Source: Elusimicrobiaceae bacterium (GTDB taxonomy: Bacteria; Elusimicrobiota; Elusimicrobia; Elusimicrobiales; Elusimicrobiaceae). From it: a stretch of 48,829 nt of DNA. Positions 34,514-36,233 of this stretch are shown in pieces (the first letter of the stretch is position 1; each line of letters opens with the position of its first letter). Position numbers and translations under genes: made by a program. Where the stretch lies: positions 1-48,829 of the forward strand of contig JAFQAA010000014.1 in NCBI GenBank assembly GCA_017417005.1, in the 5' to 3' direction. The notes below the pieces were generated by a model, which ran no database searches, was not told the origin of the DNA, and worked only from the letters and a program-made list of their open reading frames with translations.

Positions 34514-34539
34514 AAAGCCCTCTTTTTTAAGAGGGCTTT
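34514..34539 (-). terminator. Rho-independent terminator after the Cys/His-rich protein gene
   Basis: AAAGCCCTCTT (34514-34524) pairs with AAGAGGGCTTT (34529-34539). Read on the minus strand it is followed by TTTTTATTT. It ends the sigma factor operon ahead of the bamA promoter. Confidence 0.85.
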
Positions 34540-34560: not shown

Positions 34561-35166
34561 TTATTTTTCTTTTACTTCCGGCTTTACGGGCAAAATTTCC
34601 TCTGCTTTGCCCCCTTTCATTTTATCTTTGCAGGGGCAGTCTTTGTGGTCTTTTGCGCCGTCTTTCATAAAGGGGCAAGTTTTGCCGTCTTTATTTCCTT
34701 CTTTCATACAAGGGCAACCTTTATGGTGGTCTTTATCACCTTTCATACCTTTGTGATGGCCGTCTTTCATTTTTTTCATATCAGCCGGCGGAACACCAAA
34801 CATAGGTTTACGTTTGCCGGAAAGGATACCTTCGGTAATTTCAGCGATATGTTTTGCTTTATATTCAGGTTTTTTACCTTCGGCAAGTTTTGCTTTTGCC
34901 TCTGCAAGTTTCTTTTGGGAATCTTCAAGGCGTTTTTCCATTCTTTCAAGGTGTTTATCGTAGTTAGCGGCAACTTTTGCCTGGATTTTTGCCTTAATTT
35001 CCTCTTTTTTCTTATCGCTGGTTGCTTTGTTATATTTTTCTACCAGCTGGGTCATTTCCTGCTTTTCTTTTTTCATCTTTTCCATTTCTTTTTTATCTAC
35101 TTGGGCAAAAGCCATAACAGATAAAGCAAATAAGAAGGAAAAAGATAAGGCCATAACTTTCTTCAT
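34561..35166 (-). CDS. Secreted coiled-coil protein with Cys-Pro-Cys metal-binding tail
   Basis: This 201-residue protein starts at the ATG 35166 (MKKVMALSFSFLFALSVMAFA, a clean signal peptide, with AAAGGAG upstream). Residues about 20-110 are a charged coiled coil (KEEIKAKIQAKVAANYDKHL). The tail is rich in His, Asp and Lys and holds three Cys motifs: GCPCMKEG, TCPFMKDG and DCPCKDK. These look like metal ligands, although the protein is not a known metallothionein. It is the last gene of an operon with an ECF sigma factor and its anti-sigma factor, so it is probably a target or sensor of that regulon. A general resemblance to Spy/CpxP-type periplasmic helpers is only in layout. Confidence 0.75.
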   Translation of the reverse strand: MKKVMALSFSFLFALSVMAFAQVDKKEMEKMKKEKQEMTQLVEKYNKATSDKKKEEIKAKIQAKVAANYDKHLERMEKRLEDSQKKLAEAKAKLAEGKKPEYKAKHIAEITEGILSGKRKPMFGVPPADMKKMKDGHHKGMKGDKDHHKGCPCMKEGNKDGKTCPFMKDGAKDHKDCPCKDKMKGGKAEEILPVKPEVKEK

Positions 35167-35179
35167 AATATTTCTCCTT

Positions 35180-35605
35180 TTATAAACTATTGATATCTTG
35201 TAGCAAGCTATCAATATCCGCTTCAACAAGACCCACTTGGTCGTAAATTGAATCGGCAAAATATATATAGCCATTGCTTGCCGGTTTGTTTAGTTGGAAA
35301 AAACCCACAACCACAGCCAGGCAGCATGCCGCCGCACCCCCTAAAAGAAGCGGACGGGAAAATTTTGTATTTCTAAACAAATCACTAACATTAGACCACC
35401 AGGGCTTGCCTAAAATCTTGCGCATATTTAAAGTCGGGGCGATATATTCTTCCAAGGCCACATTTGTTAAAGAAATCGTGTTTATGGTGGCTTGGCATTT
35501 TTTGCAAGTTTCCAGGTGTCTTAAAAAAGCCTTTTCTTTAGAGTCTTCAAGTTCGCCATAAGCATAAAGCAAGGCTTGTTCTTCAAAGATTTTACTATGC
35601 GGCAT
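35180..35605 (-). CDS. Zinc-binding anti-sigma factor, membrane-anchored
   Basis: This 141-residue protein has the ZAS motif His30-x3-Cys34-x2-Cys37 (RHLETCKKCQ) in its N-terminal half, which in related proteins clamps an ECF sigma factor. A hydrophobic segment at about 86-103 (LLLGGAAACCLAVVVGFF) would anchor it in the inner membrane, leaving a short acidic periplasmic tail (YDQVGLVEADIDSLLQDI). The ATG at 35605 overlaps the sigma factor stop by 11 bases and has GGGAGAAG upstream, the standard coupled arrangement. Confidence 0.88.
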   Translation of the reverse strand: MPHSKIFEEQALLYAYGELEDSKEKAFLRHLETCKKCQATINTISLTNVALEEYIAPTLNMRKILGKPWWSNVSDLFRNTKFSRPLLLGGAAACCLAVVVGFFQLNKPASNGYIYFADSIYDQVGLVEADIDSLLQDINSL

Positions 35606-36125
35606 ATTCTTCTCCCAAAGATTTTTGTATCTTTTTAATAGCCCTATTTAAACGGGCAAGCACCGTGCCTAAGGGGCAATCAAGCACTGCGGCAATTTCC
35701 TTAAAACTTAGGTATTGGCGCAATAAAACAACTTCTTTTTGCTCAGTTGGCAAATTTTCAATAATGCTTTCAATATGGCTAAGTTCAAGTTTGCTAAAAG
35801 CTTTTTTGGAAGTTTCATCGCCCTGGTTAAGATTTAGGGCCTCCTCTTCCAAAGGAACAATTTTGCCCGCCTTTCTGTAAAAGTCCATAACTTTGTTTCT
35901 GGCAATAGTCCAAAGCCAAGCTTTAAATTTGCCTTCCTCTTTATATTTATCAATTTCTTTAAGCGCTTTTATAAAAGTTTCCTGTAAAATATCTTTAGCG
36001 CTAGCCTCATCTCTAAGGCTGTAATAAATAAAAGTAAAAAGCGTATCTTGGTATTTTTCAACAAGCAGGCTAAATTTTTCTTTATTGCCGCTTTTTACTT
36101 CTTTTATAATAAGCTCGTCTTGCAT
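35595..36125 (-). CDS. ECF RNA polymerase sigma factor (RpoE-like)
   Basis: Starting at the ATG 36125 (AAGGAAAAT upstream), the protein has 176 residues. Region 2 is visible as EKYQDTLFTFIYYSLRDEASAKDILQETF with KAWLWTIARNKVMDFYRKAG. Region 4 is the helix-turn-helix LPTEQKEVVLLRQYLSFKEIAAVLDCPLGTVLARLNRAIKKI. It is the first gene of a three-gene operon with its anti-sigma factor and a secreted Cys/His protein. A TTG start 18 bases upstream is possible but the ATG has the better ribosome-binding site. The stress signal is unknown. Confidence 0.93.
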   Translation of the reverse strand: MQDELIIKEVKSGNKEKFSLLVEKYQDTLFTFIYYSLRDEASAKDILQETFIKALKEIDKYKEEGKFKAWLWTIARNKVMDFYRKAGKIVPLEEEALNLNQGDETSKKAFSKLELSHIESIIENLPTEQKEVVLLRQYLSFKEIAAVLDCPLGTVLARLNRAIKKIQKSLGEEYAA

Positions 36126-36212
36126 ATTTTCCTTAGCCCTCAACTATATAACGCAGAAAGTTTAAAATTTATTGCATTTATTTTTATATTTTATAAAAAA
36201 TTACAATAAAAA

Positions 36213-36233
36213 ACCCCTGCTTTAGGCAGGGGT
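36213..36233 (-). terminator. Rho-independent terminator of rpmB
   Basis: ACCCCTGC (36213-36220) pairs with GCAGGGGT (36226-36233). On the minus strand the T-run TTTTTT follows, so it ends the leftward rpmB transcript. Confidence 0.85.

What the first reader, a model, noticed from the sequence alone, without database searches (positions are those of the whole stretch)
34561..36125. ECF sigma, anti-sigma and a secreted CPC-rich protein
The secreted protein combines a coiled coil with three Cys motifs (CPC, CPF, CPC) among His/Asp clusters. As the third gene of the sigma operon it may sense or buffer a metal or thiol stress in the envelope.
Basis: partly seen in the sequence, partly recalled or inferred. 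Interest (0 to 1): 0.5.

Follow-up and report, generated by a model that had tools for sequence, protein, structure and literature searches.

The report
Envelope-stress sigma operon with coiled-coil partner
A three-gene switch in uncultured Elusimicrobia (gut and rumen bacteria) makes a sigma factor, its membrane-bound inhibitor and a small exported positively charged helical protein, and appears to turn on an efflux pump and outer-envelope proteins; the cysteine motifs that drew attention are a recent, variable add-on rather than the core of the system.

Summary
In detail: on the minus strand lie an ECF sigma (35595-36125), a zinc-finger-type membrane anti-sigma (35180-35605) and an exported 201-aa protein (34561-35166) with a helical core and CPC/CPF/CPC in a Lys/His/Cys tail. 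The metal/thiol reading is only partly supported. In relatives the helical core and the triad order persist, but CP[CF] occurs in 12 of 14 same-genus proteins and 0 of 15 others; in the window the tail is a 39-nt tandem repeat. A promoter motif, TGCAATAA-N14-GNGTT, precedes the sigma gene in 27 of 28 loci read and defines a regulon: 60 exact sites against 3 in the reversed control over 36 genomes. Its most constant outside target is a tolC-macA-macB efflux operon (site forward in 20 of 30, reversed in 8 of 30; the 2 without it also lack the triad). Others are lipoproteins, an OMP, LpoB and candidate small RNAs. Best reading: an order-wide envelope-stress response. The basic exported protein probably works with the acidic periplasmic tail of the anti-sigma, as CpxP or CnrX do, as feedback inhibitor or sensor; that step is inference. 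New variant of a known kind.

The parts
36144..36176 (-). ECF-type promoter of the operon: TGCAATAA -35-like box, N13, TGCGTTATA -10-like box
   Evidence: Conserved upstream of sigma: first box in 28 of 28 loci (one as TGTAATAA), second in 27 of 28 (read by eye); matrix score 34.4, next best in the window 10.0 (the matrix includes this site)
35595..36125 (-). ECF sigma factor, 176 aa
35180..35605 (-). membrane anti-sigma factor, 141 aa, HxxxCxxC motif
35297..35353 (-). transmembrane segment of the anti-sigma (residues 85-103)
   Evidence: helix 85-104 in the model
35183..35296 (-). short acidic tail of the anti-sigma (residues 104-141), inferred periplasmic
   Evidence: net charge -5 here; -5 to -10 in the 29 of 29 read; C-terminal helix only at pLDDT about 40
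34561..35166 (-). exported basic protein, 201 aa, third gene of the operon
34819..35094 (-). conserved helical core of the third protein (residues 25-116)
34630..34716 (-). Cys repeat tail CPC/CPF/CPC (residues 151-179); 39-nt tandem repeat at 34632-34717
34514..34539 (-). intrinsic-terminator-like hairpin between the third gene and the bamA-like ORF
36213..36233 (-). intrinsic-terminator-like hairpin between the rpmB-like ORF and the operon promoter

Best explanation
The locus is the regulatory core of an envelope-stress response of the order that holds Elusimicrobiaceae. The membrane anti-sigma holds the ECF sigma at the inner membrane. When the envelope is disturbed, sigma is released and transcribes from TGCAATAA-N14-GNGTT promoters its own operon, a tolC-macA-macB efflux operon and a set of exported proteins. 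The third protein is exported to the periplasm, where its basic helical core acts with the acidic periplasmic tail of the anti-sigma: most likely as a co-inhibitor or chaperone that is titrated away by stress and rebuilt by the response (CpxP-like feedback), or as the sensor itself (CnrX-like). The Lys/His/Cys tail is a genus-level addition that may bind metal or form disulphides. Shown by sequence: triad, promoter motif, its gene neighbours, co-occurrence, charge pattern. Inferred: that this sigma reads the motif, contact between third protein and anti-sigma, the direction of its effect, and the signal.
For: Triad order kept across the genus, genus g6, g2 and sister family f2. Motif upstream of sigma in 27 of 28 loci. 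Exact sites against reversed control: 60 v 3 in 36 genomes; 25 v 1 with a longer pattern in 21 g6 genomes; by my sums of the table, 121 v 8 in 44 f1 genomes and 17 v 3 in 14 f2 genomes (site sums rechecked). tolC orthologues of f1: 28 of 30 have a site nearby, 20 of them forward (looser pattern); the two without, G009 and G013, also lack anti-sigma and third gene. In 22 f1 genomes site and triad agree 17/17 and 5/5 (Fisher p 3.8e-5, not corrected for kinship). tolC-macA-macB stands 1.1-3.3 kb upstream of sigma in three of three g6 loci read through. In f2, 5 of 17 sites directly precede the anti-sigma, three of them seen at the sigma/anti-sigma junction, so anti-sigma and third gene would be induced together, as feedback requires. 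Anti-sigma tails are acidic in 29 of 29 and third proteins net positive in 28 of 29. g6 targets include LpoB (E 9.5e-46) and an OMP beta-barrel (4.4e-12).
Against: No expression, binding or knockout data exist here. In 8 of 30 f1 genomes, the window's among them, the site by tolC points away from tolC, so control of tolC there is unproven. G009 and G013 are only 83% and 69% complete, and only about 230 nt upstream of tolC are held for G013, so their lack of site and triad is weaker than it looks. 10 of the 85 sites lie in genes or face nothing that I could name. In G044 (f2) the third protein has no net charge. Opposite charges alone do not prove contact. The window's third protein reaches no Pfam or NCBIfam cut-off, and its fold search is uninformative.
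Confidence: 0.5

Rival explanations
1. The third protein is a metal or thiol sensor or buffer: the CPC/CPF/CPC and His residues bind Cu, Zn or Ni, and binding relieves the anti-sigma.
For: CP[CF] in 12 of 14 same-genus proteins, three motifs beyond chance, His/Pro-rich lipoproteins and Cys-rich exported proteins in the regulon. Four of 12 g6 homologues match PF13801 Metal_resist weakly (best E 3.4e-4, 21.2 bits against cut-off 29.2).
Against: CP[CF] in 0 of 15 proteins outside the genus, six of 12 g6 proteins without Cys, copy number varies by tandem repeat, and no metal transporter noticed among the regulon genes read by eye.
Confidence: 0.15
2. The third protein is only an output of the response: a Skp- or Spy-like holdase or an envelope-stabilising polycation, with no part in signalling.
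For: It sits in the operon behind the motif; it is basic and helical; two of 12 g6 homologues match OmpH/Skp weakly (best E 3.2e-3); Skp is among the structural neighbours (Z 6.3, within the range expected for helical models).
Against: Linkage to the anti-sigma rather than to the effectors in the triads read, and the opposite charge of the anti-sigma tail.
Confidence: 0.28
3. Third protein or the small exported regulon proteins are substrates of the MacAB-TolC pump, which exports small proteins in E. coli.
For: Shared motif with tolC-macA-macB; E. coli MacAB-TolC supports export of a small protein (passage of PMC5985334).
Against: Nothing in the sequences points to export by the pump; several regulon proteins read as lipoproteins.
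Confidence: 0.04

Closest known systems
CnrYXH (Cupriavidus metallidurans ECF sigma CnrH, anti-sigma CnrY, periplasmic sensor CnrX)
   Same: ECF sigma, membrane anti-sigma and a periplasmic partner (CnrX as sensor acting on CnrY: passage of PMC4598750; the gene linkage and helical fold of CnrX are recalled).
   Different: Here the anti-sigma has the HxxxCxxC zinc-type domain, unlike CnrY as described in that review; the regulon is MacAB-TolC and envelope proteins, not Co/Ni resistance; third protein not recognised as CnrX family at the curated score.
CpxP/Spy with CpxA (E. coli)
   Same: Small exported protein, induced by the response it belongs to; CpxP damps its own sensor, likely by contact with the periplasmic domain (passages of PMC6737893).
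   Different: Output is an ECF sigma, not a two-component system; no Spy/CpxP Pfam match among the families listed for the window protein or its same-genus homologues (25 of 59 families shown).
sigma-W/RsiW and other zinc-type anti-sigma systems
   Same: ECF sigma with membrane anti-sigma of the HxxxCxxC class (passages of PMC4598750).
   Different: An extra exported partner and a different regulon.
MacAB-TolC tripartite efflux pump
   Same: Outer membrane factor, adaptor and MacB-type ABC transporter in one operon.
   Different: Under PhoPQ in Salmonella and E. coli (passage of PMC5985334); here behind an ECF-type promoter motif in relatives, and MacB is split into ATPase and permease.

Membership tests
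ECF sigma factor | sigma region 2 and region 4.2, little else | tested here: met
   PF04542 E 4.5e-19, PF08281 E 2.2e-10, both above cut-off; 176 aa
ECF sigma factor | transcribes its own operon from a dedicated promoter | tested here: inconclusive
   conserved motif upstream of sigma in 27 of 28 loci; no transcript measured
Zinc-type (ZAS) anti-sigma factor | HxxxCxxC motif in an N-terminal domain | tested here: met
   H30, C34, C37 invariant in 13 of 13; zf-HC2 matched in 13 of 13 at E <= 0.1, window protein 22.0 bits, just under the cut-off of 22.2
Zinc-type (ZAS) anti-sigma factor | binds zinc and the cognate sigma | not testable with these tools
   needs protein
Spy/CpxP/CnrX-type (PF07813 LTXXQ, PF13801 Metal_resist) | Pfam match at the curated score | tested here: not met
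   not among the 15 families at E <= 1 for the window protein; PF13801 weak in 4 of 12 g6 homologues, best 21.2 bits against cut-off 29.2
Spy/CpxP/CnrX-type (PF07813 LTXXQ, PF13801 Metal_resist) | same fold | tested here: inconclusive
   13-sequence model, pTM 0.38; fold search without significant match
OmpH/Skp | PF03938 match at the curated score | tested here: not met
   not among families at E <= 1 for the window protein; weak in 2 of 12 g6 homologues
Metal-sensing or metal-buffering protein | metal ligands conserved across orthologues | tested here: not met
   CP[CF] in 12 of 14 genus members, 0 of 15 others
Metal-sensing or metal-buffering protein | binds metal | not testable with these tools
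   needs assay
MacAB-TolC pump (regulon target) | OEP, HlyD-type adaptor, ABC ATPase and MacB_PCD/FtsX permease in one operon | tested here: met
   own genome G000:C8, locus L229 (OEP was scored on the G002 orthologue P0004, to which the own one is 62% identical)

The most novel reading that the evidence does not exclude
A previously undescribed order-wide envelope-stress response in which a basic exported helical protein, without recognisable sequence kinship to CnrX or CpxP, directly gates an ECF sigma through the acidic periplasmic tail of its anti-sigma, drives MacAB-TolC efflux and, in one genus, expresses small regulatory RNAs from the same promoter, paralleling the sigma-E and Cpx responses of E. 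coli by convergence.
Probability: 0.3. Interest if true: 0.65.

Novelty: new variant of a known kind. Interest (0 to 1): 0.5.

Why it matters
Envelope-stress responses are known mainly from a few well-studied phyla (recalled). Here a promoter motif readable in dozens of uncultured genomes gives a testable regulon in Elusimicrobiota, ties a MacAB-TolC pump to a dedicated ECF sigma, and offers a clear candidate for a third, periplasmic signalling part that can be tested by heterologous reporters. It also corrects the view of the CPC tail as the key feature.

Tried and rejected
Metal/thiol sensing as the shared function: set aside because the Cys tail is not conserved outside the genus and no metal transporter was noticed among the regulon genes read by eye; kept as a rival for this genus.

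Pfam, NCBIfam and PDB sequence searches of the third protein gave only sub-threshold coiled-coil noise. Foldseek gave no match at E <= 0.001 and VIA-align none at Z >= 8; CnrX, CpxP and Spy were not in the rows shown, which excludes nothing.

Homology of the third protein between families: g1 v g6 99.5% probability; g1 v f2 92.6%, E 4.6e-7; g6 v f2 only 17.4%. The f2 profile reaches the g1 third gene itself only in G014 (E 7e-6); its six other g1 matches are a second, unlinked ORF of about 150 aa. Coiled-coil composition can inflate such scores, so f2 homology is likely, not certain.

Two-mismatch sites in the own genome are near background (28 matches with 0-2 mismatches, of which 4 with 0-1, against 15 in the control) and were not used. 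'UPF0242' (7 of 12 g6 members, best E 6.2e-3) and other coiled-coil Pfam names were dropped as noise.

The terminator scan also tried to call genes by a ribosome-binding site; it missed known genes with leaderless or unusual starts, so its 'no ORF' is not evidence of absence. Its terminator count was controlled afterwards (9 of 77 sites against a mean of 0.1 in 20 rounds of base shuffling).

Literature: no held paper has 'Elusimicrobi', 'ECF sigma factor' and 'anti-sigma' together. In the search for MacB, TolC, ECF sigma, anti-sigma and efflux (4 of 5 terms), none of the 10 papers shown of 23 was, by title or start of abstract, about an ECF sigma driving MacAB. The ECF reclassification paper in NAR (recalled) is not held. 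One search returned no paper.

Full report
What is there. The finding's coordinates hold one operon on the minus strand. The ECF sigma runs from 36125 to 35595 (176 aa), the anti-sigma from 35605 to 35180 (141 aa), the exported protein from 35166 to 34561 (201 aa). Sigma and anti-sigma overlap by 11 nt, and 13 nt separate anti-sigma and third gene. Terminator-like hairpins lie on either side (36233-36213 and 34539-34514, 4 found against a shuffle mean of 2.8). Upstream is an ORF I read as rpmB (ribosomal protein L28), downstream ORFs I read as bamA, a Skp/OmpH-like protein and lpxD (these names are my reading, no family search was run on them). Sigma has regions 2 and 4.2 above Pfam's cut-offs. 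The anti-sigma has HxxxCxxC (H30, C34, C37, invariant in 13 of 13), zf-HC2 at 22.0 bits, just under the cut-off of 22.2, and a transmembrane helix at 85-103. The third protein reaches no cut-off of Pfam or NCBIfam.

The third protein. With 12 relatives from records of Elusimicrobia and one unnamed 'uncultured bacterium', rumen MAGs among them, AlphaFold2 gave helices at 25-47, 51-97 and 100-116 with block pLDDT 84-94 over residues 31-120 (72 over 21-30), and a disordered tail from about residue 130 (mean pLDDT 66, pTM 0.38). Invariant and near-invariant residues of 14 same-genus proteins lie almost all in that core; of the Cys only C151 is near-invariant. CP[CF] is present in 12 of 14 proteins of genus g1, 0 of 12 in g6, 0 of 1 in g2 and 0 of 2 in f2; six of the 12 g6 proteins have no Cys from residue 23 on, and five of 12 have another CPx triplet. 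In the window the tail is a 39-nt repeat of 2.2 copies, and in G007 a 75-nt repeat of 2.3 copies. The Cys motifs are therefore real (0 of 200,000 shuffles reach three) but, by inference, recent and repeat-borne.

Conservation of the triad. A match to the third protein was found in 26 of 60 relatives, among them 15 of the 18 genus g1 genomes (own included), and to the anti-sigma in 36 of 60. Not all weak hits are the operon gene: L028 and L031 carry a similar ORF away from an anti-sigma, and L026, L027, L030 and L033 were not read. In the loci that I read with both genes, the third gene lies directly downstream of the anti-sigma; G004 has only a truncated ORF and was left out of alignments and of the charge count. 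Profile comparison links g1 and g6 proteins firmly (99.5%), g1 and f2 probably (92.6%), g6 and f2 poorly (17.4%). The f2-type protein was found in 24 of 149 genomes of the phylum: 13 of the 14 f2 genomes drawn, G021, G134, G156 and G083, and 7 g1 genomes, of which only G014 by its operon gene.

Promoter and regulon. Sequences upstream of sigma in 28 loci share TG[CT]AATAA (28 of 28) and, 14 nt on, GNGTT (27 of 28, G018 deviating), read by eye. The boxes often lie so close to the start codon that the mRNA would be leaderless. In the window the site is 36144-36176, matrix score 34.4; the next best window site scores 10.0, though 3 of 20 shuffled windows held a score of 8 or more, up to 18.2 (the matrix was built with this site). 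Exact sites number 60 against 3 for the reversed pattern in 36 genomes, 25 against 1 with a slightly longer pattern in 21 g6 genomes, and, summed by me from the table, 121 v 8 in 44 f1 genomes, 17 v 3 in 14 f2 genomes, 3 v 0 in 13 genomes of other families of the class, and 74 v 13 in 78 others of the phylum (a few genomes there carry many). These sets overlap: the f2 and many f1 genomes are those.

Targets. By my reading, the 43 f1 sites are: 15 before sigma and 1 before a third gene (G018), 6 before tolC-macAB, 7 next to tolC but pointing away from it (four of these towards rfbD), 6 before lipoproteins, 2 before other genes (an exported Lys-rich protein and a prepilin-like gene, both G018), and 6 in genes or unclear. 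The 17 f2 sites are: 6 before tolC-macAB, 5 directly before the anti-sigma (at the junction with sigma in G036, G043 and G047; in G039 and G045 the stretch upstream was not read), 1 before sigma, 3 before Cys-rich-repeat exported proteins (one scored: PF00839 E 1.2e-12), 2 unclear. The 25 g6 sites: 11 before sigma, 1 tolC, 2 lipoproteins of one family, 3 multi-Cys exported proteins, 1 other exported protein, 5 before the short RNA described below, 2 unclear, one of which (L181) also ends in a terminator. The 15 further regions were picked by me, so they are not a random sample. They hold, by eye, 4 lipoproteins, one of them LpoB (E 9.5e-46), 2 OMP-like proteins (one scored, 4.4e-12), 2 Cys-repeat proteins, 1 exported 576-aa protein, 1 glycosyltransferase-like gene, 4 RNA-like intervals and 1 unclear (scores; the other lipoproteins tested there, the own-genome one included, had no Pfam match at E <= 0.05).

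The efflux operon. Taking the best tolC orthologue of 30 f1 genomes with a locus and a looser pattern, a site lies forward upstream in 20, reversed in 8, and is absent in 2, G009 and G013 (a position limit in that script did not fit G013, rechecked without it, where about 230 nt upstream are held). Those two lack anti-sigma and third gene. In 22 f1 genomes, site and triad are both present in 17 and both absent in 5 (G018 counted by third gene and ORF reading, G021 by a weak anti-sigma hit and); Fisher p 3.8e-5, uncorrected for kinship and for the incompleteness (64-88%) of several of these genomes, three of the five negatives among them. In three g6 loci read through, tolC-macA-macB lies 1.1-3.3 kb upstream of sigma. 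The window's own genome has tolC, adaptor, ATPase and permease on contig C8, with the nearby site reversed. Its other sites precede a lipoprotein (C85) and, with one mismatch, a small Pro/His-rich lipoprotein (C97).

How it may work. Anti-sigma tails beyond the membrane are acidic in 29 of 29 (net -5 to -10), third proteins from residue 23 on basic in 28 of 29 (+4 to +26; G044 zero; one start codon, G028, was set one codon early). The anti-sigma model shows a C-terminal helix but at pLDDT about 40. In 5 of the 6 f2 operon sites the motif stands before anti-sigma and third gene. An induced negative pair with complementary charge suggests CpxP-like feedback: CpxP is strongly induced by the Cpx response and damps CpxA (passages of PMC6737893). 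The alternative is a CnrX-like sensor, where metal binding to periplasmic CnrX is thought to switch CnrY (passage of PMC4598750). MacAB confers resistance to macrolides, colistin and bacitracin and in Salmonella and E. coli is under PhoPQ, which senses antimicrobial peptides (passages of PMC5985334); envelope-active peptides are therefore my first guess for the signal. I put about 0.85 on the regulon, about 0.55 on a signalling role of the third protein, and 0.5 on the whole statement.

Small RNAs. Several g6 sites face no clear gene but, within about 50-110 nt, a strong intrinsic terminator (7 of 77 distinct sites scanned: L170, L171, L176, L181, L251, L254, L255). Counting all, 9 of 77 sites have such a terminator against a mean of 0.1 in base-shuffled controls. 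Four of four folded are more stable than the shuffle mean (z -2.4 to -6.5; for the weakest, 3 of 200 shuffles do as well). One family shares a TTCATGCGTATC-like stretch; a pattern for it occurs in 7 of 41 g6 genomes, 7 matches against 3 in the control, so the pattern alone is weak, but 5 of the 7 lie just behind a site listed. These look like sigma-dependent small RNAs, as sigma-E and Cpx have (the Cpx case, CpxQ, is in passages of PMC6737893; the sigma-E case is recalled). I did not see one at the four sites of the window's genome.

Noticed in passing
L170, L171, L174, L176, L180, L181, L244, L251, L254, L255 (genus g6): Sites of the same promoter motif facing no clear gene but short intervals that mostly end in strong intrinsic terminators: candidate sigma-dependent small RNAs.
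   Followed up: partly
L197:1328-1360 (own genome C8) and L190-L195, L198: In 8 of 30 f1 genomes the motif beside tolC points away from tolC; in G000, G006 and G007 I found no gene right behind it, and in the window's genome it faces the 3' end of a convergent glycosyltransferase-like gene.
   Followed up: partly
L025 / L233 (G018): The anti-sigma of genus g2 lacks the HxxxCxxC motif, and an extra exact promoter site lies inside its gene, upstream of the third gene.
   Followed up: no
G012:C1:198442, G007:C4:65618, G017:C11:8909, G008:C10:231753, G001:C3:22922, G006:C25:4091: A second, unlinked ORF of about 150 aa resembling the coiled-coil core occurs in six g1 genomes.
   Followed up: no
L152, L156, L159 (f2); L163, L175, L182, L253, L256 (g6): Exported Cys-rich repeat proteins behind the same promoter motif; the L156 protein matches PF00839.
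   Followed up: partly
G108, G113, G115 (f10): Distant phylum members with 10, 4 and 5 exact sites of the motif and none in the control: perhaps the same or a similar regulon.
   Followed up: no
L011:51-365, L012:24-395, L015 (minus strand): In three g1 genomes the gene just upstream of the sigma promoter reads, by eye, like a ferritin-like protein; it is not behind the motif.
   Followed up: no
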